Of a DNA stretch of 64,000 nucleotides, positions 2,387 through 61,486 are shown piece after piece (the stretch's first letter is position 1; every line of letters begins with the position of its first letter). This DNA is from Companilactobacillus heilongjiangensis (GTDB lineage: Bacteria > Bacillota > Bacilli > Lactobacillales > Lactobacillaceae), in the NCBI RefSeq assembly GCF_000831645.3, contig NZ_CP012559.1, forward strand, positions 682,001-746,000, read 5' to 3'. The position numbers were made by a program, and so were the translations under genes. The notes under the pieces are model-generated. The model was not told the origin of the DNA. It made no database searches and worked only from the letters and a program-made list of their open reading frames with translations.

Positions 2387-2561
2387 CTAGCCAGAGCCGA
2401 ACAGTGATGGAGCCCGCAGTAGGAGTAGAGTTAGAGCTTTAGCTCTTACTCTACTGACGTATTTTGAGATTCGTGCTTTTTGCGAAGCTCAACATCGAGG
2501 CGCGAGACCTTGGCTCGCACCGGTCTACTGCAGGCGGAATCACAGTTCGGTTCTGGCGGCC
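2387..2561 (+). repeat. Family B structured intergenic element, copy B1
   Basis: Starts at CTAGCCAGAG and ends at TTCTGGCGGC. The ends pair (GCCAGAgCCGAAC with GTTCGGtTCTGGC). Inside are a hairpin AGTAGAGT...ACTCTACT capped by TTAGAGCTTTAGCTCTTA, a hairpin around TTGAGATTCG...CGAAGCTCAA, and the core hairpin GCGAG-ACCTTGG-CTCGC followed by ACCGGTC. The same order of parts occurs in B2 (4653-4834, inverted), B3 (4971-5113), B4 (18111-18290) and B7 (61308-61486); B5 and B6 are reduced forms. It lies between the glmM terminator and the glmS promoter. Confidence 0.85.
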
Positions 2562-2580
2562 CGAAACAAATGGCCTATAC

Positions 2581-2746
2581 ATATATACCATATAGACAAT
2601 ATCGGTACATACCAACCGTACCAATTTTTGAAAATATTAAACTTTTCTTGACAAAAAACCATTTGATTAGTATTCTAGGCATTGTCGCAAGATGATAAAA
2701 CATAAGAAATGAACTATACCATTAAAAATAAAAGAACTATACCAAT
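2581..2746 (+). promoter_or_regulatory. glmS promoter and repeated TATACCA operator-like sites
   Basis: A strong sigma-A promoter is visible: TTGACA (2648-2653), a 17-base spacer, TATTCT (2671-2676). Downstream in the leader is a direct repeat GAACTATACCAWTA at 2711-2723 and 2734-2746, 23 bases apart. Upstream lie further similar half-sites (ATACCATATAGACA at 2585, CGGTACATACCAAC at 2603, CCGTACCAATT at 2615). These resemble TGGTATA/TATACCA operators of NagR/DasR-type GntR-HutC regulators of amino-sugar genes. I see no glmS ribozyme. Operator assignment is inference; the promoter is clear. Confidence 0.5.
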
Positions 2747-2767
2747 ACAAGAAAGGCATTGATTAAT

Positions 2768-4579
2768 ATGTGTGGAATTGTTGGAGTTATTGGAAATAAT
2801 AAAACTACTGATATTTTATTGAACGGATTAGAGAAGCTTGAGTATCGTGGCTATGATTCAGCCGGGATTTACGTTAACAACCAAGACGGCAAAGATTACT
2901 TGGTTAAAGAAGTTGGTAAGATTAGTAAATTGGAAAATGCTGTGACAGACGATGTTCAAGGCCTTGTCGGTATTGGACATACAAGATGGGCTACTCATGG
3001 AACACCAACCATCGAAAATGCTCACCCTCATTTTTCAGAAGATAACCGTTTCTACCTCGTACATAACGGTGTCCTAACAAACTTTGAAGAACTCAAAACT
3101 AAATACTTGTCAGATGTTAACTTTAGCAGTCAAACCGATACTGAAGTTGCTGTTCAATTAGTTGATCACTTTGCAAAAGAAGGACTTGATGGTGAGGCTG
3201 CTTTTAGAAAAGCACTTAGCTTGATTGAAGGTTCATACGCTTTTGCAATGGTCGACAAGGAACAACCTGACCGTATCTTCGTTGCTAAAAATAAGAGTCC
3301 ACTATTGATTGGCTTGGGCGATGGCTTCAATGTTATCTGTTCCGATGCTATGGCTATGCTTGATCAAACTCATCAATTTGTTGAAATTCAAGATGGTGAA
3401 GTTGTTATCCTTAAAAAAGGTTCTGTTGAAATCAGTAAGCTTGATGGTACTCCAGTTAAGAGAGATTCTTACACAGTTGATCTTGATGCTAGCGATATCT
3501 CTAAGGGTACTTATGAACACTACATGCTCAAGGAAATTGACGAACAACCAAATGTTATGAGAAAGATTTCTCAAAATTATCTCAATGATGATGGCAGTAT
3601 GAACATTGAACCTGCTTTGTTGGAAGAAATGAAGAAAGCTGACCGTTTGTACATTGTCGCCGCTGGAACTAGTTATCACGCCGGTTTAGTTGGTCAAAAT
3701 ATTTTTGAACAAGTTGCTGATGTGCCAGTTGATGTTGAGCTTGGTAGTGAATTCGGTTATCACATGCCTAAGTTATCTAAGCACCCATTCTTCATTTTCC
3801 TATCACAAAGTGGTGAAACTGCCGATAGTCGTCAAGTGCTTGTTAAAGTTAACGAATTGAAGTTACCAAGTTTGACGATGACTAACGTGCCAAATTCAAC
3901 ACTTTCACGTGAAGCAACATTTACAATGGAATTGCTTGCTGGACCTGAAATTGCGGTTGCCTCAACTAAAGCTTATACAGCTCAGATCGCCGTTGAAGCA
4001 GTTTTGGCAAAAGCATTGGGAATGGCTAAAGGACTTGATGATGCTAAGAAATTCGACGTTAAGAAGCAATTAGCTTTAGCAGCTAACGGTATTCAAACAA
4101 TCGTTGATGAAAAAGAAACAATCAAGAAATTGACAGCTGACTTCCTAACAGATCAAAAAGACGCTTTCTACATTGGCCGTGGTATTGATTATGCCTTATC
4201 ACTTGAAGCCGCTTTGAAGTTGAAAGAAATTTCATACATTCACGCTGAAGGATTCGCTGCTGGTGAGTTGAAGCACGGAACAATCGCCTTGATCGAACAA
4301 AATACTCCAGTTATTGCCTATGTCAATGATGGTGTTGGTGCCAGTCATACACGCGGTAATATCCAAGAAGTTAAAGCTCGTGGAGCTCATGTGCTTGTAA
4401 TTGCCAGTCAAAAATACGCTGAAGCTGGGGATCAAATTATTATCCCTGAAATTGACGAATTAATTTCACCAATTATCAGTGTTGTACCTGCTCAACTCAT
4501 TGCTTACTATGCAAGTTTGGCTCGTGGCAATGATGTCGACAAACCTCGTAATCTTGCCAAAAGTGTTACGGTAGAGTAG
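2768..4579 (+). CDS. glmS: Glutamine-fructose-6-phosphate aminotransferase GlmS
   Basis: Makes glucosamine-6-phosphate from fructose-6-phosphate and glutamine, feeding GlmM. The start is set at ATG 2768 rather than the upstream TTG at 2759, because the N-terminal cysteine nucleophile must follow the initiator Met (MCGIVGVIG) and AGAAAGG at 2750-2756 is well spaced for it. The glutaminase domain (about 1-220) shows the family motifs YRGYDSAG, GHTRWATHG and HPH. Two SIS isomerase domains follow, with SQSGETADSRQ and the C-terminal KPRNLAKSVTVE. Length 603 residues is normal. It is monocistronic, with its own promoter and a terminator at 4605-4634. Confidence 0.98.
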   Translation: MCGIVGVIGNNKTTDILLNGLEKLEYRGYDSAGIYVNNQDGKDYLVKEVGKISKLENAVTDDVQGLVGIGHTRWATHGTPTIENAHPHFSEDNRFYLVHNGVLTNFEELKTKYLSDVNFSSQTDTEVAVQLVDHFAKEGLDGEAAFRKALSLIEGSYAFAMVDKEQPDRIFVAKNKSPLLIGLGDGFNVICSDAMAMLDQTHQFVEIQDGEVVILKKGSVEISKLDGTPVKRDSYTVDLDASDISKGTYEHYMLKEIDEQPNVMRKISQNYLNDDGSMNIEPALLEEMKKADRLYIVAAGTSYHAGLVGQNIFEQVADVPVDVELGSEFGYHMPKLSKHPFFIFLSQSGETADSRQVLVKVNELKLPSLTMTNVPNSTLSREATFTMELLAGPEIAVASTKAYTAQIAVEAVLAKALGMAKGLDDAKKFDVKKQLALAANGIQTIVDEKETIKKLTADFLTDQKDAFYIGRGIDYALSLEAALKLKEISYIHAEGFAAGELKHGTIALIEQNTPVIAYVNDGVGASHTRGNIQEVKARGAHVLVIASQKYAEAGDQIIIPEIDELISPIISVVPAQLIAYYASLARGNDVDKPRNLAKSVTVE

Positions 4580-4604
4580 TCTAATTTAATAGAAAATGTT
4601 AATG

Positions 4605-4634
4605 ATAGCTTCCAATATGGAGGCTATTTTTTTG
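4605..4634 (+). terminator. Intrinsic terminator of glmS
   Basis: Stem ATAGCTTCC / GGAGGCTAT with an AATAT loop, followed by seven T residues. Confidence 0.92.
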
Positions 4635-4652
4635 TTTTGGGTTTGGGGGAAC

Positions 4653-4834
4653 TGCCGCCTGTGGGTGCCATACGATGTAGCCTGCTATGAGGACCGACTT
4701 GAGCCAAGGTCTCAAGTCTCGCTTTGAAGCCTTGCCATAGGTTCGGCAAGTCTCCAAAGTCGCCCTGTGGTGTAAGAGCTAAAGCTCTAACGCCACCTCC
4801 ATAGCTGTCTACATCGATGGCACCCACAGGCTAG
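4653..4834 (-). repeat. Family B structured intergenic element, copy B2 (inverted)
   Basis: Read on the minus strand it begins CTAGCCTGTGGGTGCCAT and ends ATGGCACCCACAGGCGGC, a long paired outer stem of its own sequence. Inside, in family order, are GGTGGCGTTAGAGCTTTAGC / TCTTACACCAC, the GACTTGCCG...CGGCAAGTC-type region around 4735-4755, and the core ACTTGAG-ACCTTGG-CTCAAGT followed by CGGTCC. The core stem differs from B1 (GCGAG/CTCGC) yet keeps pairing. It is the only copy in the minus orientation relative to the neighbouring genes. Confidence 0.85.
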
Positions 4835-4888
4835 ATTGTTTTTGGATTGGATATGTTATCTCGCTTATTTGCATATTTAATTCAAAAC

Positions 4889-4928
4889 CAAAAAACAAAC
4901 AGACCTTTATCATAGGTTGATAGAGGTC
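4889..4928 (-). terminator. Possible minus-strand terminator between two B elements
   Basis: Inverted repeat GACCTTTATCA / TGATAGAGGTC. On the minus strand it is followed by TTTGTTTTTTGG, so it could end transcription running leftward. No minus-strand gene is nearby, so its use is unclear. The remaining bases of 4835-4970 are AT-rich with no other feature seen. Confidence 0.4.
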
Positions 4929-4970
4929 AATAATGTAGAATATTTAGTTGTATTAATTTTGAGAGATAAA

Positions 4971-5113
4971 CTAGTCGGAAGAAATGAGAGTTTCACCCGC
5001 TGTGGGTGTGGCGTTATGGCTTCAGCCATTACACCACCGGGCGTGTTTGAAGACCGCACTTTGGCTCGAGCCGGTCCGCATAGCAGGTGAAAACTCTCAT
5101 TTCTGGAGACGGC
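4971..5113 (+). repeat. Family B structured intergenic element, copy B3
   Basis: CTAGTCGGA...GGAGACGGC ends, outer stem AAGAAATGAGAGTT with AACTCTCATTTCT, then GGTGTGGCG-TTATGGCTTCAGCCATTA-CACCACC as the second hairpin and the GACCGCACTTTGGCTCG / AGCCGGTCC core. It lacks the third hairpin present in B1, B2, B4 and B7. Its right end is 21 bases before the ATG of the permease gene, so it either holds that gene's promoter or lies in its 5' UTR. Confidence 0.85.
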
Positions 5114-5134
5114 AAACAATAGATTGGTGGTTTT

Positions 5135-6730
5135 ATGAGGGATAAAAAGTTAAATCTGTTCTCAACTGTGATGTTTGGCCTTAGTGCCATTATTGGTTCA
5201 GGATGGATGTTTGGTTCCAGTCAGGCTGCTAAGATTGCTGGTCCAGCTGCAATTGTGGCTTGGATTTTAGGGGCGATTTTGGTAGCGATGATTGCGATGG
5301 TTTACGTTGAAATTGGAACGATGTTTCCTGAAGATGGGGCGATGAGTCGCTTTACAATGTATACTCATGGTTCACTGTTAGGACACATTTTTTCATGGGC
5401 CAATTGGCTTTCACTGTTGGCAATTTTACCGATTGAGGCGGTGGCATCCACACAGTACATGAGTACTTGGCCTTGGAAATGGGCACAGTGGACGCATGGT
5501 TTTATGAAAAATGGTCAGTTGTCTTTCAGCGGTATTCTTATGGCAACGGTTTTAATCTTAGTTTTTACGTTGATAAATTATTGGTCAGTTACGATTATGG
5601 CCAAATTTAATAATTTCATTTCAGTTTTCAAAATTGCGGTACCAATTATTACAATGATTTTGTTAGTTTCAGCCCATTTTGATTTAAATAATATGGGGAC
5701 AACGATTCATCAGTTTATGCCGAATGGAACGTCATCAATTTTCGTAGCCATTGGTAGTGCAGGAATTATTTATTCGTACGTGGCTTTTCAAACGGTAATT
5801 AATTTAGGTAATGATATTATCAAACCGGCGGTTAATATTCGCCGCGGAATTATTTATTCGTTGTTAATAAGTGCTCTGATTTATATTACTTTACAAATTG
5901 TCTTCATTGGAGCTTTGCCAAAATCGATCGTCAGCAGTGGTTGGTCACAGATTAGTTTCAACTCACCATTTGCGGATCTGGCAATTCTCTTAAATGTGTA
6001 TTGGTTATCAACTTTGATTTACTTCACAGCGTTTATTTCACCAATTGGAAGTGGGATAGCTTTTTCAGCTTCAGCAAGTAAATCATTGTCTTCAATGCCT
6101 AAGAATAAACATTTACCTAAAATTTTGAGTAACACGAATAATAATTACAGCACGCCAAGAATTGCCTTAATGGTCGATTTCTTGGTCAGTGTGATTTTGA
6201 TTTTGTTGTTTAAAAATTGGGCATTATTGTCACGAGTTGTTGCAGCGTCAACGTTGATTTCGTTATTGTCGGGTCCAGTCGTTGCTGGTAGTTTGCGTAA
6301 AATGGGACCAAATTTCAAACGTCCAACGAAGATTCGAGGGATGAGATTATTGGCTCCATTGGTTTTCGATTTAATTAGTTTGGCAATTTACTGGTCAATG
6401 TTTCCAACGACTGTCGAAGTTATCGTGATTATTATTGTGGGGTTGCCCATTTACTTTGTTTACGATTTTCGTCGTGGATTTAAAGAGTTCAAACAGAAGT
6501 TTTATGCAAGTCTTTGGCTGATTGTTCATTTGGTTGGTCTATCAGTTATTTCGTGGATTGGTAGCAGTCATTTTGGTGGGATCAATACGATTCAATATCC
6601 TTGGGATTTTCTCGTGATTATGATATTTTCAACCGTAATTTATTATTGGGCAATTAATTCCTCCTATCATTCGGGCTATTTTGACGATGCCAAGAGACTT
6701 AATTCAACCGTGAATTGGGATGAAAAATAA
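5135..6730 (+). CDS. APC-superfamily amino-acid permease
   Basis: An integral membrane protein of 531 residues, predicted by eye to have about 12-14 membrane helices. The N-terminal region FGLSAIIGSGWMFGSSQAA carries the APC signature (the GSG break in helix 1), and AGPAAIVAWILG and PEDGAMSRF follow as in amino-acid:proton symporters of the YbxG/AspT-like permease group. The substrate cannot be told from sequence. The ATG at 5135 is preceded by GGTGG at 5126-5130. The stop codon overlaps the next start by one base, so it is co-transcribed with the VanZ-like gene. A family B element lies immediately upstream. Confidence 0.9.
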   Translation: MRDKKLNLFSTVMFGLSAIIGSGWMFGSSQAAKIAGPAAIVAWILGAILVAMIAMVYVEIGTMFPEDGAMSRFTMYTHGSLLGHIFSWANWLSLLAILPIEAVASTQYMSTWPWKWAQWTHGFMKNGQLSFSGILMATVLILVFTLINYWSVTIMAKFNNFISVFKIAVPIITMILLVSAHFDLNNMGTTIHQFMPNGTSSIFVAIGSAGIIYSYVAFQTVINLGNDIIKPAVNIRRGIIYSLLISALIYITLQIVFIGALPKSIVSSGWSQISFNSPFADLAILLNVYWLSTLIYFTAFISPIGSGIAFSASASKSLSSMPKNKHLPKILSNTNNNYSTPRIALMVDFLVSVILILLFKNWALLSRVVAASTLISLLSGPVVAGSLRKMGPNFKRPTKIRGMRLLAPLVFDLISLAIYWSMFPTTVEVIVIIIVGLPIYFVYDFRRGFKEFKQKFYASLWLIVHLVGLSVISWIGSSHFGGINTIQYPWDFLVIMIFSTVIYYWAINSSYHSGYFDDAKRLNSTVNWDEK

Positions 6731-7248
6731 TGGATAAGTTAAAGAAAAATGAAAAGTGGTTCTGGGGTGGCGTAGTTTTGATTGAACTGATTTTGTTTTA
6801 CAGTTCGTCTATGACTTACAAACAACAAACTTCAGTACCATTTCTAGAAAAATATGTGCATGGCAAACCGCTTAAGAGTAGCTTGAGTCAGATTCATTTT
6901 AATTATGGTGGTAAGGAACAGTCGATTGCGAATGATGGCTATTATCACTTTGTGGAGTTTTTTATTCGTAAAGGAGCTCATTTTGGTACGTATTTAATTT
7001 TGGCGGTATTTCTTTGTTTAGCACTTTATACGTATTTCAAAAAAAATCATTTTTTAAATGTATTTGTTCCATGGTTAATGACAACTGGTCTAGCAGCTTT
7101 CGATGAATTTCATCAAGGATTGACTGGTGGACGGACACCTTCAGTGACAGATGTCATACTGGATAGTGCTGGAGCGCTTACAGGTGCCTTGATTGTGGTG
7201 ATTATTACGTATTTTGTCATAAGACATAAAAATGTGAAAAAAGTTTGA
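6730..7248 (+). CDS. VanZ-family membrane protein
   Basis: 172 residues. After an N-terminal helix, the VanZ-type core shows KGAHFGTYLILAVFL and the motif DEFHQGLTGGRTPSVTDVIL (D-E-x-x-Q and the R/S-x-x-D-V-xx-D signature), followed by a last helix. VanZ-like proteins are small membrane proteins, some linked to lipoglycopeptide tolerance; most have no known function, and resistance should not be assumed. The ATG overlaps the permease stop (ATAATGG), implying translational coupling. A terminator follows at 7296-7322. Confidence 0.88.
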   Translation: MDKLKKNEKWFWGGVVLIELILFYSSSMTYKQQTSVPFLEKYVHGKPLKSSLSQIHFNYGGKEQSIANDGYYHFVEFFIRKGAHFGTYLILAVFLCLALYTYFKKNHFLNVFVPWLMTTGLAAFDEFHQGLTGGRTPSVTDVILDSAGALTGALIVVIITYFVIRHKNVKKV

Positions 7249-7295
7249 ATTTGTTATTGAAAAATGAGTCATTTTTTTAAAAATCTGCTTGTCAA

Positions 7296-7322
7296 AGTCG
7301 ACCTAAATGGTCGGCTTTTTTG
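7296..7322 (+). terminator. Intrinsic terminator of the permease-VanZ operon
   Basis: Stem AGTCGACC / GGTCGGCT with a TAAAT loop, then a T run. The rest of the 7249-7471 gap holds an AT-rich stretch with TATAGTATAC (a possible -10) and a GAGATG / CATCTC inverted repeat in the leader of the next gene. Confidence 0.88.
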
Positions 7323-7471
7323 CTATATTGTTTAGTCATTCTTTTTTATGAGCCTGCCGCATAGACACCATGTGCTAAATATTTAAAAAATAATAAGAAA
7401 TGTTATAGTATACGGTTGAGATGTTTAGACAGGTTCGGAGAAATTTCATCTCAATAGGACGGTTTATTATT

Positions 7472-10400
7472 ATGGCAAATAAGAAGATCATGTTAAACAA
7501 GAAGCAGTTATTGATTGCTGCGGGCGCAGCCATGACTTTAGGACTGGGAACCACGTTCAGCCATGAGGCCGTTATTCATGCGGCTACTACTACCGATGAT
7601 ACTAGTTCTGTTCCAACACCTTCTGAAAGCTCAAATACAAGTGTGAAGGATGCTACGACAACTGATAGTGGCAGTTCATCAACAACTTCAAATACAACAA
7701 ATGAAAATAAAGAATCCGATACACCAAGTACTCCAACACCAACTGATGTTAGTGGAGGAGATAATGGCAGTTCAACTGGGACAACAAGTTCTGATGTAGC
7801 ACCATCCACAGTGTCATCTGCAATTTCAGGTGAAACAAATGAGCCTGCAACTTTAAAAACACCAGTGACTACAGATTCAAAAGTGGCTCCAGCGACTTCA
7901 ATAGGTACAGCTGTAACTGCGGGCACGGCTGCATCTTCAACTATCCCTGCAACACAATCGGGTTCTACAGCGGTTGTTGAAAGTACATCAATTGAAAAAG
8001 AATCCACGGATCCGGCTACAGCAGCTGTTACTAGTTCAACTACGACACCGTCAACGACCACACCGACTACCCCAGCACCAACAGGTTTAACACCAGTAGA
8101 TACTGCGGCTAATACAATTACATCAGATGCTGATCATACAGATGCAAATGACTTTACCTGGAGTACCAACGATGATACTGGTGAAGCTTCTTTGACTGGT
8201 ACAACTAGTCAGTTGACTGATTCGTCAGTAAATATTCCTACTCAAATTACAGTTACGAATAATAGTTCCAAGGATAGTAAGCAATACAACGTTACGAGCA
8301 TTGGTAATGATGCCTTTGCCAGCAATCAAACGATAACCAGTGTTAAAGTCAACAGCGGGGTTACAAGTATTGGCAATAACGCATTTATTTATTCAACTTT
8401 GAAAAATATTGATTTGACGGATGACACTACCCTAAAAAGTATTGGTGATTTAGCATTTTGGGGTAATCAAATTCCAACAATTGATTTGCCTGACTCCGTT
8501 CAAACTATCGGTAACGAGGCGTTTACTTATAATAGTGCGGTGACTTCAATAACACTGCCAGCCAATTTACAGACGATTGGTGATCAGGCCTTTGCCGCAA
8601 ATACTAGTTTACAAAATATTGATTTTTCAAAAGACACAGCTTTGACAAGTATTGGAGAATCAGCTTTTTCTGGAGATTCTGAAAATAATAAAATTGATTT
8701 AAGCAATAATAATAATTTGATATCTATTGGCAACCAAGCGTTTGTTTATAACAGTAGAAGTACTGAAGTTAAGTTGCCTGATAGCTTGCAGACGATTGGT
8801 GATCAAGCCTTTCTTTCAAATTTAGGCCTCCAAAATATCAGTTTTGGACCTAATTTAATATCAATTGGCAATCAGGCTTTCACTTATGATGGTGATTTGA
8901 CGAGTGCTGATTTTTCTAATGCCAACAAATTGAGTAGTATCGGCAATGGAGCCTTTGAATTCGCCAATCTGACTGGAACTTTGACGTTGCCAAGCAGCTT
9001 GGTTACAATCGGTAATCAAGCATTTAGTGGCAATCACATTGGAACATTGAATTTGAATGAAGGATTGCAGTCAATTGGAGAATCAGCTTTTTCTTACAAT
9101 GATCTGAATAATGACTTAACTATTCCAAGCACGATTAAAAATATCGGTAATGAATCGTTTATTGGTAATCAGTTGACGAGTGTTTCCACCACAGCCTCAG
9201 ACTTTTCACTAGGTGAGAATGCTTTTTCATATAATCGAATTACCCAAGTCAATGCTCCAAACGTTAAAATTGGAACGACTGCTTACAATATAAACAGTGC
9301 AACTAATCAGTTTGCGGCTATTTTCACTGATTCTGCACACAATAATATTTCCGATTACTTTAATCTTGATATTGGTGGTCTTACTGAGAATGCCTTAGGC
9401 ATTACTGAATTATCCAATGGTGTAACGTATAAGAATGGTATTTTCGATATTCCAACAGGTGTGGGTAGTTTTACATTTAGTTGGATTCTGTCACCAGATT
9501 CAGAAGCTGATAAAGGTTACAGTGGTGTTTACGATGTAGTTTTGGATGATCCTAATATTAAAGCAATTAATTCTAGCATTCCTGCAGGTACTAACTGGGA
9601 ACCTGTGGATAATTTTGTCAGTGCATCCACAACATCCGGAAAAGATATACCATTTTCAGAAATTGACGTAAGTGTAACAAATCCTGCTGGAGATGACGTT
9701 AAGACAATAGATACGACAGTGGCAGGTAATTATACAGTCACTTATAGTTATGATAAGACCTTTAAAAGTACGGTCAATGTCGAGGTATATAAGCGTACGG
9801 GAACATTTGATTTAGATGGTACGGGTTCTAAAACTTATAATGGTCAAAATCAATCTTTTGATAATAGTGATTATCAAGTTGTTCTATCGAACGGGACAAA
9901 CTATCAAATTCAAAATGGTGATTTGGAGTTGAATCAAACAGCTAAGAATGCTGGAAACTATACGGTTACTTTGACGCAACAGGGAATTAATAACATTGAG
10001 AATTATGGACAGAATAGTTTATATGATTTAACGATGGGGACGGATACAGCTTCATTTGATATTAATAAAGCTCCGGTTACCATTACAAGTAATGACGCTA
10101 CTAAAGTTGCTGGAACCGATGATCCTAGTTTTACAGCAAAAGTCGATGGATTAGAAAATATTACTGATGGCGATCAGTTAGTTTATAGTATTAGCAGACC
10201 TGATGGTCAAACGGTTGGCAGCTATGATTTATCGGTTGTTGCTAATGCCACTGACAATCCTAATTACGATATTACAACTTTGAATACTGGTAAATTAACA
10301 ATCACAGCTGCTGCTAAAACTATCAATGGTAGCGACTATACAATGCACGTAGGTGATCCAACGCCAACTGCTAATGATTTTAAAGCCACTTCAACAGATG

Positions 10401-11068
10401 AAAATGCTCAATCTCAGACAGTTAATGTCGACCTTACACAGGCCAATCTGAATGCTGCTGGTACATATAATGTTGTTTTGAGTACTGCGGACGGACAATC
10501 AAAGAATGTTAATTTGATAGTTCTTGCAAAAGATACTACCGGACCAGTTGATCCAACGGACCCCACAGATCCAACAGATCCAACGGACCCAACAGATCCA
10601 ACAGATCCAACAGATCCAACAGACCCAACAGATCCAACGGACCCAACAGATCCAACGGACCCAACGGACCCAACAGATCCAACGGACCCAACGGACCCAA
10701 CAGATCCAACGGACCCCACAGACCCAACGGATCCAACAGACCCAACAGACCCAACAGACCCAACAGATCCAACAGATCCCACAGACCCAACGGACCCAAT
10801 AGATCCCAAAGATCCATCAGTTCCAAACACTGAATCCAAAGGTAGCGGTGAATATATTGTTTCGGGAAATGTCTATTATGTTCCTGGTCCAAAAGGAAAG
10901 AGCAATGGTACTTTAATTGCTACCAATTATCGTCCAACTTATCAAAAATCCAATGTCGCAACGTTCCCTCAAACCGGAAATAACAGCGGAATTGGAATGC
11001 AAATTTTGGGTGTTTTGATTGGTATTTTGACATTTGGTGTAATCGATATCAAAAAAGTACATCATTAA
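7472..11068 (+). CDS. Large secreted surface protein: BspA-type leucine-rich repeats, MBG-like domains, Asp-Pro-Thr wall spacer, FPQTG sorting signal
   Basis: About 1198 residues from ATG 7472, chosen over the in-frame ATG at 7421 because AGGACGG (7456-7462) is well placed and the signal peptide then starts normally (MANKKIMLNKKQ, hydrophobic core, cleavage after HAA). Order: signal peptide; about 170 residues of Ser/Thr-rich linker; a run of LRR_5/BspA-type repeats (recurring TIGNQAF, SIGESAF, TLPSSL); an Ig-like region; two MBG-type domains (TYNGQNQSF, ITSNDATKVAG); 27 uninterrupted DPT triplets; then FPQTG, a hydrophobic helix and KK, a sortase-A type anchor with Phe in place of Leu. Likely role is adhesion to host or matrix polymers, by analogy to BspA proteins. 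Confidence 0.9.
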   Translation: MANKKIMLNKKQLLIAAGAAMTLGLGTTFSHEAVIHAATTTDDTSSVPTPSESSNTSVKDATTTDSGSSSTTSNTTNENKESDTPSTPTPTDVSGGDNGSSTGTTSSDVAPSTVSSAISGETNEPATLKTPVTTDSKVAPATSIGTAVTAGTAASSTIPATQSGSTAVVESTSIEKESTDPATAAVTSSTTTPSTTTPTTPAPTGLTPVDTAANTITSDADHTDANDFTWSTNDDTGEASLTGTTSQLTDSSVNIPTQITVTNNSSKDSKQYNVTSIGNDAFASNQTITSVKVNSGVTSIGNNAFIYSTLKNIDLTDDTTLKSIGDLAFWGNQIPTIDLPDSVQTIGNEAFTYNSAVTSITLPANLQTIGDQAFAANTSLQNIDFSKDTALTSIGESAFSGDSENNKIDLSNNNNLISIGNQAFVYNSRSTEVKLPDSLQTIGDQAFLSNLGLQNISFGPNLISIGNQAFTYDGDLTSADFSNANKLSSIGNGAFEFANLTGTLTLPSSLVTIGNQAFSGNHIGTLNLNEGLQSIGESAFSYNDLNNDLTIPSTIKNIGNESFIGNQLTSVSTTASDFSLGENAFSYNRITQVNAPNVKIGTTAYNINSATNQFAAIFTDSAHNNISDYFNLDIGGLTENALGITELSNGVTYKNGIFDIPTGVGSFTFSWILSPDSEADKGYSGVYDVVLDDPNIKAINSSIPAGTNWEPVDNFVSASTTSGKDIPFSEIDVSVTNPAGDDVKTIDTTVAGNYTVTYSYDKTFKSTVNVEVYKRTGTFDLDGTGSKTYNGQNQSFDNSDYQVVLSNGTNYQIQNGDLELNQTAKNAGNYTVTLTQQGINNIENYGQNSLYDLTMGTDTASFDINKAPVTITSNDATKVAGTDDPSFTAKVDGLENITDGDQLVYSISRPDGQTVGSYDLSVVANATDNPNYDITTLNTGKLTITAAAKTINGSDYTMHVGDPTPTANDFKATSTDENAQSQTVNVDLTQANLNAAGTYNVVLSTADGQSKNVNLIVLAKDTTGPVDPTDPTDPTDPTDPTDPTDPTDPTDPTDPTDPTDPTDPTDPTDPTDPTDPTDPTDPTDPTDPTDPTDPTDPTDPTDPTDPTDPIDPKDPSVPNTESKGSGEYIVSGNVYYVPGPKGKSNGTLIATNYRPTYQKSNVATFPQTGNNSGIGMQILGVLIGILTFGVIDIKKVHH
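10550..10792 (+). repeat. 27-unit Asp-Pro-Thr coding microsatellite (9-bp unit)
   Basis: 243 bases made of 27 units GAY-CCM-ACR, followed by single DPI, DPK and DPS variants. Asp codons alternate GAT/GAC and Thr codons ACA/ACG, so the DNA repeat is imperfect and longer blocks are duplicated. Unit number is likely to vary by slippage or recombination, changing the length of the wall-spanning stalk. The long antisense and alternative-frame open stretches here are by-products of the repeat. Confidence 0.95.
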
Positions 11069-18110: not shown

Positions 18111-18290
18111 TAGTCGGAAGGGATGAGAATATTTACCCGCTATGGGTGTGGCGTTAGAGCTTCAGCTCTTACACCACCGGGCGTATTTGGAGACTTGCGA
18201 TTTTTCAAGGCTTCAAATCGAGGTTCGAGACCGTACTGTGGCTCGGACCGGTCCGCATAGCAGGTGAATATTCTCATCCCTGTAGACGGC
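18111..18290 (+). repeat. Family B structured intergenic element, copy B4
   Basis: Ends TAGTC-GGA and GTA-GACGGC. The outer stem AGGGATGAGAATA / TATTCTCATCCCT is a perfect 13-bp match but unlike the stems of other copies. The second hairpin is GGTGTGGCG-TTAGAGCTTCAGCTCTTA-CACCACC, the third is around CTTGCGATTTTTCAAGG / CTTCAAATCGAGG, and the core reads CGAGACCGTACTGTGGCTCG then GACCGGTCCGCATAGCAGG. It lies between the ackA terminator and the oleate hydratase promoter. Confidence 0.87.
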
Positions 18291-53652: not shown

Positions 53653-53684
53653 TTTAGAGTAAGATGTACGTGGAACAGACAATT

Positions 53685-53846: not shown

Positions 53847-53863
53847 AAAATAGTTCTACTATA

Positions 53864-54075
53864 CGCATGGTGCTAGTTGATAACCTATTACAAATATTTC
53901 ATAGTCTAAAATTGTTTGAATGCTTTCACATTCGACTAATAACGATTAATTAGTCGGAAGAGCTGGAAAATATTTGTGTACCATGGTTCGAGACCGTATT
54001 TTGGCTCGGGCCGTTCCGCACAGCTTGAGAATATTTCCCAGCGCTGGAGACGGCATACTTAACTAGCACCACGCG
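53864..54075 (+). mobile_element. MITE-like unit carrying a family B element
   Basis: Terminal inverted repeats of 15 bp with one mismatch: CGCATGGTGCTAGTT at 53864-53878 and AACTAGCACCACGCG at 54061-54075. Both are flanked by the direct repeat TTCTACTATA (53854-53863 and 54077-54086, the right one after one extra T), like a 10-bp target duplication. No coding capacity; the interior holds CGACTAAT / ATTAGTCG and the short B5 element. No transposase with such ends is in the window. Confidence 0.5.
53951..54054 (+). repeat. Family B structured intergenic element, copy B5 (reduced)
   Basis: TAGTC-GGA and GGA-GACGGC ends; outer stem AAGAGCTGGaAAATATT with AATATTTCCCAGCGCT. The second hairpin is missing and only the core GGTTCGAGACCGTATTTTGG / CTCGGGCC remains between the arms. 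It lies inside the MITE-like unit 53864-54075. Confidence 0.78.
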
Positions 54076-54208
54076 TTTCTACTATACAATATTTATGAAT
54101 CATGTCCTCAAATTCACATTATCATTATCTTTTTGGTATATATATCATTTGAAAAATGGGTTAATATTGATAATATGAATTAGTGTATAAGTATTTAAGG
54201 AATTACGC

Positions 54209-54249: not shown

Positions 54250-54283
54250 CTAGACGTCAAAGGATGATGTCGGAGGGAATTTT

Positions 54284-55028: not shown

Positions 55029-55036
55029 TTGTCTTC

Positions 55037-55098
55037 AATAATTTGTTATAACAAATTATTATTTTGTATTGACACAGAAATATAAATGAACTTATAAT
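55037..55098 (+). promoter_or_regulatory. Operator and promoter of the beta-glucoside PTS operon
   Basis: A perfect 24-bp palindrome at 55037-55060, each half being AATAATTTGTTA. Nine bases later a strong promoter: TTGACA (55069-55074), 18-base spacer, TATAAT (55093-55098). A related palindrome overlaps the gntR start region. The GntR protein just upstream is the obvious ligand. A site upstream of -35 can fit either activation or repression. Confidence 0.75.
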
Positions 55099-55131
55099 GT
55101 AACCGTTAACAAAAAGAAGGGGGTTTCATTT

Positions 55132-55440
55132 ATGAAACAATTAAAGATTGCTATTTTTTGTAGCGGTGGATTTTCCACAAGTCTTATCGGTGCCAAAATG
55201 CAAAAGGTATATGACGCAGAGGGTAAGGATGTAAAAGTTGATGCATACGACTTTGGTATGGTTGACGAAGTTGGCGATGATGCCGATGTTATTTTGTTAG
55301 CACCACAAATTGGTTGGGCCTTTGATCAAACCAAAAAGGGTCACCCAAATACAAAGGTCATTCTTCTAACAATGCAACAATTTGGTAGTATGGATGGTCA
55401 AGTTTTAGTTGATGTATTGAAAGAGAAGGGAATAGATTAA
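55132..55440 (+). CDS. PTS lactose/cellobiose-type EIIB component
   Basis: 102 residues. The phosphorylated Cys10 lies in the family loop AIFCSGGFSTSLI. YDFGMVDEVGDDADVILLAP and TMQQFGSMDGQVL are typical of CelA-type EIIB. It carries the phosphate from EIIA to the sugar during uptake. RBS GAAGGGGG. Stop is one base before the EIIC start. Confidence 0.95.
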   Translation: MKQLKIAIFCSGGFSTSLIGAKMQKVYDAEGKDVKVDAYDFGMVDEVGDDADVILLAPQIGWAFDQTKKGHPNTKVILLTMQQFGSMDGQVLVDVLKEKGID

Positions 55441-55441
55441 T

Positions 55442-56842: not shown

Positions 56843-56876
56843 TTTATTAAAAAAAACGGCAAAGGAGAAAAATATC

Positions 56877-57206
56877 TTGGATGAAAAACAATTAAAAAGA
56901 GCAATGGAGTTGATCTCAGTTGCCGGTACTGCAAAATCACAATGTGTTGAAGCTATGACTATCGCCGAAACTGGTGATATTGATGGTGCAAGAGAAAAGT
57001 TAAAAGTAGCACACAAGACTTTGCACGAAGCACATAATATTCAAACTAAATGGATGACCGATGAAATGAACGGTGAAAAAGTTGAGAAATCAATCATGTT
57101 GATTCACTCGCAAGACCACTTTATTTCAGCAGATATTATGATGACAGTAGCTGAAAAGGTTATCAATTTACACGAAGAACTAAATACTCTTAAGGCTAAG
57201 GAATGA
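56877..57206 (+). CDS. PTS lactose/cellobiose-type EIIA component
   Basis: 109 residues from TTG 56877, with AAAGGAG (56861-56867). A three-helix protein; the phospho-accepting His77 and metal-site Asp80 lie in LIHSQDH, as in LacF/CelC. SVAGTAKSQCVEAM and KVAHKTLHEAHNIQTKW are also typical. It completes a self-standing EIIB-EIIC-EIIA set. Five bases to the next gene. Confidence 0.94.
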   Translation: MDEKQLKRAMELISVAGTAKSQCVEAMTIAETGDIDGAREKLKVAHKTLHEAHNIQTKWMTDEMNGEKVEKSIMLIHSQDHFISADIMMTVAEKVINLHEELNTLKAKE

Positions 57207-57210
57207 TTTT

Positions 57211-58704
57211 ATGGCAACTGAAGTATTAGAGCTTGATCCACTATATTCAAATAATATGGTCATACCAGCTAATAAAGCCTTCAAAATCAGTGGGACTGCT
57301 GTCAGAGATACGGAAGTCTATGCAGAAATAGACAATCAAGTTTTGCGTACAACTTCTGATGTTGATGGTAATTGGTTGATTGAAGTTGCTCCAATCGAAA
57401 GTCAAGTTGAGACAACTTTGAAGGTCCAAAACTTAGATGAAGAAATAATTGTCAATAATATTAAAACTGGGCAAGTCATTCTTCTGACAGGTCAATCTAA
57501 TATTGAATATGAATTTCAAAATGATTGTGAATATCAGGATCAATTAAAGGATATTAATTTTAAAGATGCTTATTACTACAATGTTCCTAAACTTGAATAT
57601 CGTGATGAGAAGCAAACTTTGCCAGATGATTTACCAATTCCTGCTTGGAAGTTAGTCAAGGATACAACCGTTGGCAGTTTATCAGCAGTTGGTTACTGGA
57701 TGTTAAAGCGTTTCAAACAAATATATCCGGACCGAGTAATTGGGATTATCGACTGTTATAAAGGCGGTACTTCAGCGTCATCTTGGGTACCAGAGACTGT
57801 GTTGCAGAGTGATAAGGAATTAGTTGATACTTTTATCAAACCATTTCATGAAGCAATTGATGGCAAAACTGCTGATGATTTTAAACAAGAATTTGTTGCG
57901 TATAATGCCGCGGTGGCTGATCACAATACTAAATTGAGTGCCTTTACTAAAAAGTATCCCGAGGTTTCACTGAGTGATGCTAAGGATAAAGTGGGACACA
58001 CGCCATGGCCACCTCCAATGACACCAACGTCGTTCTTAAGACCCAATGGTTTGTATCACACGATGATTGAAAAGGTTAGAAATTATCCATTCAATAAAGT
58101 TGTCTGGTATCAAGGTGAAAATGATGCTCCAAATCCTGAGGTATATAAGAAATTATTGCGTGGATTGATTATTAGCTGGAGACAATTGTTTAAAAATACT
58201 TCGTTGCCATTTTATATTGTTCAACTTCCAGGATACTTTGATGAACCAAAGGATGCATGGCCAATGATTCGTCAGAGTCAGTTGGATGTATCTCAAACAA
58301 TTAATGATGTTCACTTAGTTTCAATTTCTGATACGGGCGATATGCACAATATTCACCCTGAATCAAAACGGATTGCCGGAACACGTCTGGGAGAGATTAT
58401 ATCAGGTATTCAATATAGCGATACGCCAACAGTTTATAAACAAGAAATCGTTAATAATGGGTTGCTACTATTTGTTAAAAATGCTTCGATGTTAAGCGCT
58501 AGAGGAAACGCTTATGTTTCAATCAGAAATAATCAGGAGTGGATCGAGCAAGAAGTATATACACAAGGCAATACAGTGATGATTCCAAATGCGGAACATG
58601 CAATTGAGATCAGATATGAGTATAAGAATTTTCCTAAATGTACGATATTTAATGAGTACGGGGCACCATTGTCACCGTTCGAAATGAAAGTAGGCAGAGG
58701 CTAG
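57211..58704 (+). CDS. Cytoplasmic SGNH carbohydrate acetyl-esterase (sialate O-acetylesterase-like)
   Basis: 497 residues, no signal peptide. After an N-terminal beta domain (about 1-85), the SGNH hydrolase core has block I LTGQSNIEYE (Ser96), block II DCYKGGTSASSW, block III VVWYQGENDA and block V DMHNIHPESK (His about 382). This is the SASA/DUF303 esterase pattern. With no secretion signal, it must act on sugars already imported, so the PTS probably takes up acetylated beta-glucosides. Coupled closely to EIIA (4 bases) and the ROK kinase (1 base). Confidence 0.85.
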   Translation: MATEVLELDPLYSNNMVIPANKAFKISGTAVRDTEVYAEIDNQVLRTTSDVDGNWLIEVAPIESQVETTLKVQNLDEEIIVNNIKTGQVILLTGQSNIEYEFQNDCEYQDQLKDINFKDAYYYNVPKLEYRDEKQTLPDDLPIPAWKLVKDTTVGSLSAVGYWMLKRFKQIYPDRVIGIIDCYKGGTSASSWVPETVLQSDKELVDTFIKPFHEAIDGKTADDFKQEFVAYNAAVADHNTKLSAFTKKYPEVSLSDAKDKVGHTPWPPPMTPTSFLRPNGLYHTMIEKVRNYPFNKVVWYQGENDAPNPEVYKKLLRGLIISWRQLFKNTSLPFYIVQLPGYFDEPKDAWPMIRQSQLDVSQTINDVHLVSISDTGDMHNIHPESKRIAGTRLGEIISGIQYSDTPTVYKQEIVNNGLLLFVKNASMLSARGNAYVSIRNNQEWIEQEVYTQGNTVMIPNAEHAIEIRYEYKNFPKCTIFNEYGAPLSPFEMKVGRG

Positions 58705-58705
58705 T

Positions 58706-59575
58706 ATGAAAAATTTAGGATTGATTGATATCGGTGGAACTTCTATCAAGTTTGCCGTATGGAAAGATAATGAATTAAAAAAATTAAAACCAGTACCAAC
58801 GCCTTCAACATTAGGAGAATTTTACAATGTTCTGACTGATCAAGTGGAAAAAATGAAGCAGTATCAAATTGTGGGTGTCGGAATTAGCTCACCTGGTGCT
58901 GTTAATAAGAAGACTGGTGTAATTGAGGGTGCGTCAGCGATTCCTTATATTCATAATTTCAAGATTCAACAAGCATTGGAAGAAAGGTTTGGATTGCCAG
59001 TAAGTATTGAAAATGATGCTAATTGTGCAGCTTTGGCTGAATTGGATTCCGGAGCTGGAAAAGATGTCGATAGTTTGGTCTTCTTAATTGTTGGAACCGG
59101 TGTGGGTGGTTCTGTGATTATTGATCATAAAATTTGGCATGGTGCCCATTTATTTGGTGGCGAGTTTGGATATATGCTATCGGACAACAAAAATACACTA
59201 AGTAATTTGGGAACTTCGGTAAATGTTGCTAATAGATATAATATAAATTCGAAACCTGTTTCAAATTATTCAGGCAAAGAAGTATTTGATTTAGCTAAAA
59301 AGGGTGATGAACGTGCTCAAAAAGAGGTACACACGATGTATTACGCTTTGGCTAAAAGCATTTACAATTTGCAATATAGTTTTGATCCCGAATTAGTTGT
59401 GCTTGGAGGAGCAGTTTCCAATAATCCTGACTTGATTCCAGCAGTTAACAAAGAGATTGAGAAAATTAGAAAAATAGTTGAAATTGCATCGATAAAACCT
59501 CAAGTTGTCGCTTGTCATTATACGGATGAAGCCAACTTGCGCGGTGCTTTGGTCGATTTCAATCAACAGAAATAA
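58706..59575 (+). CDS. ROK-family sugar kinase
   Basis: 289 residues. Phosphate motif LIDIGGTSIKFAVW, EN-D-A-N signature SIENDANCAALAE, and GTGVGGSVIID with a GAHLFGGEFGY helix. The zinc-binding Cys cluster of many ROK proteins is absent, as in BglK and glucokinase-like members. In this operon it could phosphorylate glucose or beta-glucoside released by the hydrolases. It starts a base after the esterase stop codon and ends before family B element B6. Confidence 0.88.
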   Translation: MKNLGLIDIGGTSIKFAVWKDNELKKLKPVPTPSTLGEFYNVLTDQVEKMKQYQIVGVGISSPGAVNKKTGVIEGASAIPYIHNFKIQQALEERFGLPVSIENDANCAALAELDSGAGKDVDSLVFLIVGTGVGGSVIIDHKIWHGAHLFGGEFGYMLSDNKNTLSNLGTSVNVANRYNINSKPVSNYSGKEVFDLAKKGDERAQKEVHTMYYALAKSIYNLQYSFDPELVVLGGAVSNNPDLIPAVNKEIEKIRKIVEIASIKPQVVACHYTDEANLRGALVDFNQQK

Positions 59576-59582
59576 GGGTTGA

Positions 59583-59663
59583 TCGTTTCCAGAAATGAGA
59601 ATGTTTACCTGCTATGCGGGCCGTTCCGAGCAGCAGATGAATACTCTCAGCTCTGGAAACGGC
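59583..59663 (+). repeat. Family B structured intergenic element, copy B6 (minimal)
   Basis: Outer stem CGTTTCCAGaAATGAGA / TCTCAGCTCTGGAAACG with a second segment TACCTGCTATGCGG / CCGAGCAGCAGATGA. The second and third hairpins and most of the core are missing; only GGGCCGTTCC remains in the loop. It is 81 bp, between the ROK kinase and the phospho-beta-glucosidase genes of one operon, so it must be transcribed. Confidence 0.7.
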
Positions 59664-59688
59664 ATACATAATAACTTCTAACAAAAAA

Positions 59689-59737
59689 TGGAAAGGATGG
59701 TTCAAGGGGCACCGCATGTCACTTGGGCCTTTCTTTG
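59689..59737 (+). terminator. Weak hairpin/terminator between ROK and glycosidase genes
   Basis: GGAAAGGatggttCAAG / CTTGggCCTTTCTTT around a 15-base loop containing CACCGCATG. The T tail is short, so it may be an attenuator or an RNA-processing site rather than a full stop. Confidence 0.45.
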
Positions 59738-59757
59738 TAATTAAGGAGATAAAATAA

Positions 59758-61149
59758 ATGCTTAAATTTCCAAAAGATTTCGCATGGGGTGCTGCAACGT
59801 CTGGCCCTCAATCTGAAGGTAACTTTCACAAGCCAAATCAAAATGTCTTTGATTATTGGTATGAAAAGGATCCAGATGCTTTCTATGATGGAGTAGGACC
59901 CGACACAGCTTCAAATTTTTATAATGATTATAAAAAGGATATTCCATTGATGGCCAAGGCTGGTATTCGTTCATTGCGTACTTCAATTCAATGGACTAGA
60001 TTGATGGCCGATGTTGATAAAGGAATTGTCGATGAAGACGGGGTAGAGTTTTACAACAATGTCATTGATTGCTTGTTGGATAATGGTATTGAACCTTATA
60101 TCAATTTATTCCATTTTGATTTACCTATTGATCTATATAAGAAATACGGTGGTTGGGAGTCAAAGCATGTAACTGATTTATTTGCCGATTACGCTGAAAA
60201 ATGTTTTGAGTTATTTGGCAGTAAAGTCAAGAACTGGTTTACATTCAATGAACCAAAGGTGATTTTGGATGGCGAGTATTTGTATCAATTCCATTATCCA
60301 TTGAAGGTTGATGGCCCCGCAGCTGTTCAAGTTGCTTATAATATCAATTTAGCTTCAGCCAAGGCAGTTGCTAGATTTAAGAAGTGGCGTAAGGAAAATA
60401 ATTCCGACGCTAAAATTGGAACTATTTTAAATTTGACACCTGCATATCCTGCAACCAATGATCCAGAGGATGTTGCTGCTGCAGAGTTTGCAACCCTTTG
60501 GGACGATAATATGTACTTGGATCCAGCCGTTAAAGGTCACTTCCCAGAAAAACTGGTTAAAATTTTGGACGATGCTAATGTTTTATTCGACAGCACTCCA
60601 GAAGAATTAAAGATAATTGCTGATAATACAATTGATGTTTTGGGAGTCAACTTCTATCATCCAGAACGTGTCATGCGTCCAAGCGTTTCACCAGATAGTT
60701 TGCAAGATTGGATGCCAGATATTTATTTCGACAATTACGAAATGCCAGGACGTGTTATGAATGTTGATAAGGGATGGGAAATTTATCCTAAAACACTTTA
60801 TGATATTGCCATCAATATTCGTGATAATTACGGCAATTTGCCATGGTTTGTATCTGAAAATGGTATGGGAGTATCACATGAGGAACGTTATTTGGATGAC
60901 AAAGGCGTTGTTCAAGATGATTACCGGATTAAATTTATCAAAGACCATTTGACTGAATTACATCGTGGTATCGAAGCCGGTTCTAACTGCCACGGCTTCT
61001 TTGTTTGGACAGGAATCGATTGTTGGTCATGGAAGAATGCTTATCGAAATCGCTATGGACTGATTAGAAATGATATTCATACGCAGACTAAGACGATTAA
61101 AAAGTCTGGCCAATGGTATGCCAAATTAAGTGAGAACAATGGGTTTTAG
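59758..61149 (+). CDS. Glycoside hydrolase family 1 6-phospho-beta-glucosidase
   Basis: 463 residues. Acid/base Glu165 in WFTFNEPK and nucleophile Glu367 in PWFVSENGMGV. WGAATSGPQSEG at the N-terminus and FVWTGIDCWSWKNAYRNRYG at the C-terminus are GH1 features; the C-terminal WKNAYRNRYGLI with Lys/Tyr fits phosphate binding. It splits phosphorylated beta-glucosides imported by the PTS into glucose-6-phosphate and aglycone or glucose. RBS AAGGAG. It is separated from the rest by a B6 element and hairpin but in the same orientation. Confidence 0.93.
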   Translation: MLKFPKDFAWGAATSGPQSEGNFHKPNQNVFDYWYEKDPDAFYDGVGPDTASNFYNDYKKDIPLMAKAGIRSLRTSIQWTRLMADVDKGIVDEDGVEFYNNVIDCLLDNGIEPYINLFHFDLPIDLYKKYGGWESKHVTDLFADYAEKCFELFGSKVKNWFTFNEPKVILDGEYLYQFHYPLKVDGPAAVQVAYNINLASAKAVARFKKWRKENNSDAKIGTILNLTPAYPATNDPEDVAAAEFATLWDDNMYLDPAVKGHFPEKLVKILDDANVLFDSTPEELKIIADNTIDVLGVNFYHPERVMRPSVSPDSLQDWMPDIYFDNYEMPGRVMNVDKGWEIYPKTLYDIAINIRDNYGNLPWFVSENGMGVSHEERYLDDKGVVQDDYRIKFIKDHLTELHRGIEAGSNCHGFFVWTGIDCWSWKNAYRNRYGLIRNDIHTQTKTIKKSGQWYAKLSENNGF

Positions 61150-61167
61150 GTATTTGTAGATCTGAAA

Positions 61168-61208
61168 AAGGGACTTCCTATAAAGTGTTACGTAGAAAGT
61201 CCTTTTTT
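61168..61208 (+). terminator. Intrinsic terminator after the glycosidase gene
   Basis: AAAGGGACTTcCTATAA / TACGTAGAAAGTCCTTTTTT imperfect stem, T run. Confidence 0.8.
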
Positions 61209-61307
61209 GAGTTGGTAAGAGTTTTAGAATTTATTCGATTATGATTAAATGACTTTGGACTGTTGATCTTGATATAAGAAATCAGGTGTAAATAAATTTA
61301 GATATTT

Positions 61308-61486
61308 TAGTCGGAGGTTGAGAGATAGTCCACTGGCAGTGACAGTGGTGTTAGGACGACGAAGTCGTTCTTACAGCACAGACGTATTTTGAGATTCGCG
61401 TACTTTGCGAAGCTCAAAATCGAGGCGAGAGACCTTGGCTCGAACCGGTCTCACAGCAAGCGGACTATCTCTCAACCGGAGACGGC
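61308..61486 (+). repeat. Family B structured intergenic element, copy B7
   Basis: TAGTC-GGA and GGA-GACGGC ends. Outer stem GGTTGAGAGATAGTCC / GGACTATCTCTCAACC, a perfect 16 bp unlike any other copy. Second hairpin GTGTTA-GGACGACGAAGTCGTTC-TTACAGCAC, third TTGAGATTCGCG / GCGAAGCTCAA, core CGAGACCTTGGCTCG. It lies between the glycosidase terminator and the metQ leader. Confidence 0.88.

What the first reader, a model, noticed from the sequence alone, without database searches (positions are those of the whole stretch)
2387..61486. Family B: a dispersed, covarying, multi-branched intergenic element (7 copies)
Copies at 2387-2561, 4653-4834 (inverted), 4971-5113, 18111-18290, 53951-54054, 59583-59663 and 61308-61486 share ends (CTAG/TAGTC... 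and ...GACGGC), order of parts and a core (GAGACC-TTGGCTC-CCGGTC). Arms vary but stay paired: outer stems GGTTGAGAGATAGTCC, AGGGATGAGAATA, AAGAAATGAGAG each have their own complement; hairpin 2 caps read GGACGAC/GTCGTTC, TGGCT/AGCCA, GAGCT/AGCTC; core stems read GCGAG/CTCGC, TTGAG/CTCAA, CGAG/CTCG. That is covariation, so the fold, not the sequence, is kept. It could be a BOX/RUP-like repeat, a non-autonomous mobile element, or a structured RNA. I know of no named family with these ends.
Basis: partly seen in the sequence, partly recalled or inferred. Interest (0 to 1): 0.88.

Follow-up and report, generated by a model that had tools for sequence, protein, structure and literature searches.

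The report
Folded mobile repeats in Companilactobacillus
The seven intergenic copies belong to a very abundant family of small non-coding mobile DNA elements in food lactobacilli, all built around one folded module of about 185 bases whose shape is preserved best in the lineages that spread, which suggests that the folded strand itself takes part in how the element multiplies.

Summary
In detail: all seven copies are there, though c5 and c6 are damaged and c2+c3 form one inverted pair. The genome is a Companilactobacillus; 57 copies lie in 264 kb (about 600 per genome, extrapolated). Covariation supports the fold: 62 of 67 pairs change on both sides over 111 distinct sequences, 96% of cells paired. 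No Rfam family matches.

The elements are mobile. Of 30 insertions whose site could be mapped in a relative, 11 have a relative with at most 25 nt there. Subfamily E (C. huachuanensis) is a 321-bp MITE with the ends of an IS4-family IS. Subfamily D has other ends and 8-9-bp duplications; c5 is one, with a perfect 9-bp duplication. A has sharp ends but no inverted repeats or clear duplication. In another family of the order the module lies inside an ISL3 element.

Changes shared between copies avoid stems and favour G·T over A·C. Private changes avoid stems less (D) or not significantly (E, A). Inference: one folded strand (RNA or ssDNA) is a mobility determinant, its machinery unknown. Against it: three D copies lack two hairpins, and two-sided private changes are commoner than chance.

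The parts
2387..2561 (+). c1: diverged (B-type) module upstream of a promoter-like sequence of glmS, with its own self-complementary outer stem
   Evidence: region without it in G015 (C. musae, 91 vs 614 nt) and G041 (26 vs 218 nt)
4633..5117 (.). interval holding c2 + spacer + c3 after the glmS terminator; 485 nt between anchors here versus 13 in G041 and 11 in G015 (but 172, 169 and 565 nt in G002, G006 and G010)
4653..4834 (-). c2: B-type module, left arm of the pair, 5' end facing inward
4835..4970 (.). spacer of the pair, no likeness to other spacers seen by eye
4971..5113 (+). c3: A-type module lacking hairpin 2, right arm of the pair
18111..18290 (+). c4: intact A-type module; 356 nt here versus 20 nt in G041 between anchors (199 in G010, 380 in G002, 87 in G015)
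53863..54076 (+). c5 element: D-type MITE, ends ACGCATGGTGCTAGTT...AACTAGCACCACGCGT, with internally deleted module (53951-54054)
   Evidence: G010 lacks a 388-nt interval that includes the element and more
53854..53862 (.). left 9-bp target duplication TTCTACTAT of the c5 element
54077..54085 (.). right 9-bp target duplication TTCTACTAT of the c5 element
59583..59663 (.). c6: apparently a collapsed pair, outer end of a (-) module joined to outer end of a (+) module; near-palindromic
   Evidence: 27 and 26 bits on the two strands
61308..61486 (+). c7: B-type module between a gene end and the T-box leader of a metQ-like gene

Best explanation
The copies are insertions of non-autonomous mobile elements that all contain one ~185-nt module: an outer stem with a GNA/GNA internal loop closing a junction that carries three hairpins (hairpin 1 with a U·U, hairpin 2 with an A·G mismatch, hairpin 3 with GAGACC/GGCTC). 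Shown: dispersal, empty sites, DNA-transposon ends and duplications for the D and E subfamilies, inverted pairs with 5' ends inward, and preservation of the fold on one strand that is stronger for variants shared between copies than for private ones (very clear in E, slight in D, not significant in A). Inferred: the module acts as a folded single strand (RNA transcript or exposed ssDNA) needed or helpful for amplification; DDE transposases (an IS4-family one for E) cut and join the terminal-repeat subfamilies. Inserted copies then mostly decay.
For: Empty sites: 11 of 30 mapped units (of 42) have a relative with at most 25 nt between anchors, e.g. 335 vs -1, 291 vs 2, 865-874 vs -4 and 4, 485 vs 11 and 13, 542 vs 10, 515-523 vs 7 and 16 nt. 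E-MITE: the 40 scored places (of 571 candidates) each cover at least 298 of 321 bases at 89-100%; 6-bp duplications within one mismatch at 10 of 27 end pairs, control 4.6%; same ends on IS with an NF049925 (IS4-family) transposase. D-MITE: 8-bp repeats within one mismatch at 8 of 15, control 4.8%; c5 perfect 9 bp. Fold. Substitutions outside/loop/stem: E 9.6/7.8/1.7%, D 12.2/8.7/2.8%. Shared changes in E: 21 of 3671 stem versus 280 of 3520 outside; private 41 versus 57 (p 0.07; shared-private difference p 2e-14). Distinct variants G·T:A·C shared 12:2, private 23:22.
Against: The shared-private contrast is slight in D (p 0.03-0.04) and not significant in A (p 0.11); in D private changes also avoid stems (37 of 4496 versus 52 of 2271 outside, p 1e-6). 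Two-sided variants seen only once are 32 pairing to 3 broken over A, D and E, far more than independent neutral changes give (expected 10.6, 1.8 and 0.5 two-sided cells in all against 102, 34 and 6 seen in A, D and E): so 'private' is not purely post-insertion, or arms correct each other. The distinct-variant strand test is small (14 shared events, interaction p 0.03). D copies lacking hairpins 1 and 2 with the same junction occur at three places, one with a perfect duplication, against 39 full ones. A-type copies show no inverted repeats and no general duplication (exact 9-mers in 3 of 83, about 0.9 expected). Extended inverted repeats beyond the module exceed the 95% control level in only 4 of 25 pairs (own mean 16.8 versus 14.8, p 0.017). 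Transcription was not tested.
Confidence: 0.64

Rival explanations
1. A cis-acting structured RNA (5' or 3' UTR regulator, terminator or insulator) selected at each site; the host keeps the fold.
For: Intergenic placement (0 of 57 copies inside an ORF of 150 aa or more), strong covariation on the module strand, occupied orthologous sites (23 of 38 mapped copies in G002, 13 of 17 in G010), and stem avoidance among private changes in D.
Against: Private changes in E and A do not significantly avoid stems. c1 and c7 lie between a gene end and the next promoter-like sequence, so they need not be transcribed with it (by eye). Co-located copies in related species are often of unlike subtypes (mean similarity rank 0.68 and 0.51 where 0.5 is random). 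No conserved run of T follows the A-type module. Hundreds of copies beside unrelated genes.
Confidence: 0.15
2. Ordinary MITEs whose fold is a by-product of inverted repeats kept alike by arm-to-arm correction at palindromes, without a function of the fold.
For: Palindrome correction (recalled) can imitate compensatory change; two-sided variants seen once are 32 pairing to 3 broken, and A has 101 pairing to 1 broken two-sided cells.
Against: Correction should copy many stem changes to the other arm, so stems should vary about as much as flanks; in E only 6 two-sided changes occur while outside positions differ at 9.6%. Specific mismatches survive: U·U in 95 and A·G in 96 of 116 rows. G·T excess on one strand among shared variants.
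Confidence: 0.12
3. The module is a passive passenger of DDE transposons (IS4-like, D-type, ISL3) and its fold matters for something unrelated to movement, such as shielding the transposon from read-through.
For: It sits within three differently ended transposons, and D copies without two hairpins exist at three places.
Against: A-type modules are spread widely without shared transposon ends (83 copies, sharp boundaries).
Confidence: 0.08

Closest known systems
[quoted passage not shown]
   Same: Small, non-coding, intergenic, high copy; D and E have terminal inverted repeats and target duplications; E shares ends with an IS.
   Different: A common 185-nt covarying fold recurs in elements with different ends and duplication lengths; A-type has no inverted repeats; selection seen on one strand's fold.
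BOX / RUP / SPRITE repeats of Streptococcus pneumoniae (PMC3049150, nine passages seen)
   Same: Small interspersed structured repeats, modular, largely intergenic.
   Different: The fold here has three hairpins on a long outer stem and about 600 copies. The terms covari- and compensat- have 0 occurrences in that paper's main text. BOX, RUP and SPRITE sequences were not compared directly.
REP / REPIN sequences with RAYT transposases (recalled)
   Same: Inverted pairs of imperfect palindromes, hundreds of copies.
   Different: Units are 185 nt with a multibranch fold; Y1 transposase (PF01797) presence does not follow copy number.
ISL3-family insertion sequences
   Same: In genome G133 the module lies between the transposase stop and the right end of a 1785-bp ISL3 element, seen at three fetched places at 99.8% identity or more.
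   Different: Of 30 ISL3 loci fetched in Companilactobacillus 2 had a module nearby and neither had it inside.
ERIC repeats
   Same: Very high copy structured intergenic repeat (711 copies in Photorhabdus luminescens, as cited in PMC10969869, passage seen).
   Different: Not compared by sequence; other taxonomic range.

Membership tests
MITE | terminal inverted repeats | tested here: met
   E and D subfamilies only; A-type not met; pairs: 4 of 25 above the 95% control level
MITE | target-site duplication | tested here: met
   E 10 of 27 (8 exact), D 8 of 15 within one mismatch, controls under 5%; c5 perfect 9 bp; A-type not met, 3 of 83
MITE | too short to encode a transposase | tested here: met
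   E 321 bp, D about 303 bp, module about 185 bp
MITE | autonomous IS with the same ends in the same genome | tested here: inconclusive
   for E, IS4-family elements with the same ends in G010 but with broken frames; none found for D (the one long candidate is two separate D elements) or A
REP/RAYT or IS200/IS605-like | Y1 HUH transposase accompanying the repeats | tested here: not met
   PF01797 in 18 of 36 species; absent from high-copy G002, G006, G009, G016, present in G007, G040, G014, G037, G043 where the model found no copy
any Rfam family | match at gathering or E <= 5 | tested here: not met
   window: no match over any copy; 19 further loci at gathering level: one match (THF riboswitch), not over a module
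ISL3 end structure | module inside ISL3 elements | tested here: inconclusive
   yes in G133; inside none of 30 ISL3 loci of the genus
structured non-coding RNA | transcript | not testable with these tools
   no expression data

The most novel reading that the evidence does not exclude
The module is itself a replicator: a folded single-strand (RNA or ssDNA) satellite element without genes that multiplies to hundreds of copies as a bare 185-nt unit (A-type), inserts beside or into the ends of unrelated DNA transposons, and is carried by them; its fold is the substrate of a still unidentified machinery in Lactobacillales.
Probability: 0.25. Interest if true: 0.92.

Novelty: new variant of a known kind. 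Interest (0 to 1): 0.72.

Why it matters
Structured bacterial repeats (BOX, ERIC, REP and others) have long been known without agreement on whether their folds matter to the host or to the repeat itself (recalled). Here private and shared changes within young subfamilies can be separated, and in the clearest case (E) the answer points to the repeat: the fold is kept in the lineage that spreads and is hardly kept afterwards. That makes the role of a folded strand in the movement of gene-free elements testable. It also names a ready experimental system: one module carried by elements with different ends.

Tried and rejected
Y1/IS200-type mobilisation: no association with copy number. A general target duplication for A-type: 3 exact 9-mers in 83 copies; an earlier set of 29 gave 2. 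An autonomous IS with modules at both ends: the candidate L181 proved to be two separate modules round a host-like gene and an IS fragment. A D-type autonomous IS: L240 is two neighbouring D elements. Spacers as captured ancestral DNA: relatives with empty sites have -4 to 16 nt where four pairs stand and 53 nt at a fifth, so spacers came with, or after, insertion; other relatives have about 100 to over 1000 nt at many pair sites. Pair partners as products of one duplication: partners are less alike (0.638) than random pairings (0.688; 0.9996 of permutations at least as high, 13 pairs with both members scored). ISL3 as parent in this genus: no module inside any of 30 loci. Orientation to replication: 43 of 71 top copies run with the fork if the origin is at position 1, 50 or 51 of 71 if it is placed from GC skew; in the 264-kb stretch 34 of 57 copies and 140 of 185 ORFs are on the + strand, so no separate meaning was drawn. 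Gene-context classes from crude ORF calls (34 units) were judged too small to use. Plasmids: one partial match in Limosilactobacillus reuteri; phages: none. Literature: searches showed no description of this family in their listings (one search listed 15 of 1,733 papers; one search found none holding both terms); EFAR of Enterococcus faecalis was recalled as a possible analogue but one search found no paper on it.

Counting choices: model matches on the opposite strand of the same palindromic place were dropped by hand before counting 57 (one search lists 138 matches in 26 sources). Site mapping: 30 of 42 units in the 264 kb could be mapped in at least one of five relatives (counted by hand). 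In the E test 27 of 30 fetched copies entered the alignment (length filter). In one search, 25 of 30 E loci had an end pair; one search counted 27 end pairs in the same 30 loci and 15 D end pairs in 30 loci. The A6 alignment (116 rows) contains at least one antisense row (L058) that was not removed. Structures for the substitution tests were predicted from each subfamily's own consensus, and A, D and E there are 30, 30 and 27 copies of larger families.
Full report
What was checked. The seven copies are in the sequence at the stated coordinates. They share ends, order of parts and the core as described, except that c6 lacks the core and c5 lacks hairpins 1 and 2. The five copies folded alone are far more stable than shuffled sequence. 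No Rfam family matches them at gathering level or at E up to 5.

Where it comes from and how many. A permease gene of the window finds Companilactobacillus species in the named genome collection; contig lengths identify G010 as C. huachuanensis, G006 as C. nantensis, G015 as C. musae and G005 as C. kedongensis. The window's own genome (2,790,548 bp) is left out of that list; I recall C. heilongjiangensis as having this size, which was not tested. BLAST with c4 scored 40 close copies (85-100%) of 502 candidates in the own genome. A covariance model found 57 places in 264 kb around the window after opposite-strand shadows were dropped by hand, about 600 per genome by extrapolation. None of the 57 lies inside an ORF of 150 aa or more, while 22% of the stretch is outside such ORFs. 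In the genus 27 of 36 species have matches at E <= 1e-4, 71 being the per-genome scoring cap.

The fold. On 34 copies 98.5% of cells pair and 35 of 67 pairs change on both sides; no shuffle of 500 reaches either value, and sliding partners by 1-3 columns drops pairing to 35-44%. On 111 distinct rows from many species 96.0% pair and 62 of 67 pairs change on both sides (this alignment was fitted to the structure, which favours it). Distant subfamilies with little shared sequence fold alike by energy alone. Kept non-canonical sites: U·U in hairpin 1 (95 of 116 rows), A·G in hairpin 2 (96 of 116), and G and A at the flanks of the 3x3 loop (103 and 103 on one side, 103 and 104 on the other, of 116).

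Pairs. Many copies come as inverted pairs with their 5' ends facing inward. In the 264-kb stretch the 16 neighbours closer than 500 bp are 15 (-)(+), 1 (+)(+) and none of the other two orders; in the G010 and G002 stretches the 4 and 6 neighbours closer than 600 bp are all (-)(+). Spacers, mostly 39-466 bp, look unrelated by eye, apart from a few that share the D-type extension (no formal test). Partners are less alike than random pairings, perhaps because like arms make unstable palindromes; c6 looks like such a collapse (inference).

Mobility. Of 42 units in the 264 kb, 30 could be mapped in at least one of five relatives, and 11 of these have a relative with at most 25 nt between the anchors, for example 485 nt here against 13 and 11 nt in G041 and G015 for c2/c3, and 388 against -2 nt in G010 for c5, where the missing interval is longer than the element. 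At the other mapped sites relatives hold sequence of their own, often with a copy. In C. huachuanensis one subfamily, E, is a 321-bp element with ends ACTAAAGGTTGAAAG/CTTTCAACCTTTAGT; the 40 places scored (of 571 candidates) each cover at least 298 bases at 89-100%. Six-base duplications within one mismatch flank 10 of 27 end pairs, 8 of them exact, control 4.6% and 0.6% (one search shows lengths varying from 5 to 8). The same ends bound elements of 1054-1477 bp in G010 and G036; the broken transposase of two of them matches NF049925, an IS4-family model. A fragment of such a transposase is found in 4 of 36 genomes and not in G000. In the own genome another subfamily, D, of about 303 bp has ends ACGCATGGTGCTAGTT/AACTAGCACCACGCGT and 8-bp repeats within one mismatch at 8 of 15 end pairs, control 4.8%. 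Window copy c5 is a shortened D element at 53863-54076 between perfect copies of TTCTACTAT. The A-type has sharp boundaries (AAATTAGTC...GACGGC) over 83 copies, no conserved flank and no general duplication. In G133, a genome of another family of the order, the module sits between the transposase stop and the right end of a 1785-bp ISL3 element (NF033550, E 5.6e-90), but 30 ISL3 loci of Companilactobacillus have none inside.

When selection acts. Within E, 27 copies differ from their consensus at 9.6% of positions outside the module, 7.8% in loops and 1.7% in stems; within D (30 copies) 12.2, 8.7 and 2.8%. Split by sharing, E has 280 of 3520 shared changes outside and 21 of 3671 in stems, but 57 and 41 private ones (p 0.07); the contrast has p 2e-14. 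In D the private changes avoid stems too (37 of 4496 against 52 of 2271 outside, odds 0.35, against 0.19 for shared ones; contrast p 0.03). In A the private changes do not (40 of 4242 in stems, 16 of 1374 in loops, p 0.44), but the contrast with shared ones is not significant (p 0.11). Counting each variant once over A, D and E, single changes from Watson-Crick pairs give G·T 12 and A·C 2 when shared, 23 and 22 when private (interaction p 0.03; per cell 56:7 and 18:19). So the module strand, as a single strand that tolerates G·U, appears to be what is selected, mainly before a copy settles. RNA and single-stranded DNA cannot be told apart here. Two results go against a simple form of this. Two-sided variants seen only once are 32 pairing to 3 broken, so the private class holds older lineages or arm correction. 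And three D copies share a deletion of hairpins 1 and 2, one of them c5 with intact duplications, so the whole fold is not strictly needed for D.

Unexplained. 23 of 38 mapped G000 copies have a copy at the same site in G002 and 13 of 17 in G010, in the same orientation at 17 of 23 and 8 of 13, yet the copies there rank little above random in similarity (mean 0.68 and 0.51). No chance level for site sharing was computed. Repeated insertion into the same spots, or replacement of one module by another, could do this.

Known kinds. This is a MITE-like, structured interspersed repeat of the general kind of BOX, RUP or ERIC (passages of PMC3049150 and PMC10969869). For D and E the defining MITE features were met; for A they were not. 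The listings of searches showed no paper describing this family; one of them listed only 15 of 1,733 papers.

Noticed in passing
window 1968-2221: Two ~125-bp tandem copies of another structured-looking repeat; a similar sequence stands at the orthologous c4 site of G002, so it may be a second dispersed family.
   Followed up: no
window 61770-62009: T-box leader before a metQ-like gene, 91.2 bits, just under the Rfam gathering score of 93.
   Followed up: no
window 10473-10871: Array of 9-nt repeats inside the 1215-aa ORF 7421-11068.
   Followed up: no
L181 ~2079-2221: A module in C. kedongensis is interrupted by what looks like the 5' end of a group II intron (motif recognised from memory).
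   Followed up: no
L033 1134-1421: A small ORF resembling an antitoxin (by reading only) lies between the two arms of a module pair.
   Followed up: no
L240 2616-2828, L140 9417-9531, window 53863-54076: Three D-type copies share the same internal deletion of hairpins 1 and 2, so a shortened form may have spread.
   Followed up: partly
L290, L291 (G087 and G180, next to a gatB-like gene by reading): Nearly identical module at the same place in two species of another family of the order: apparently an old insertion.
   Followed up: no
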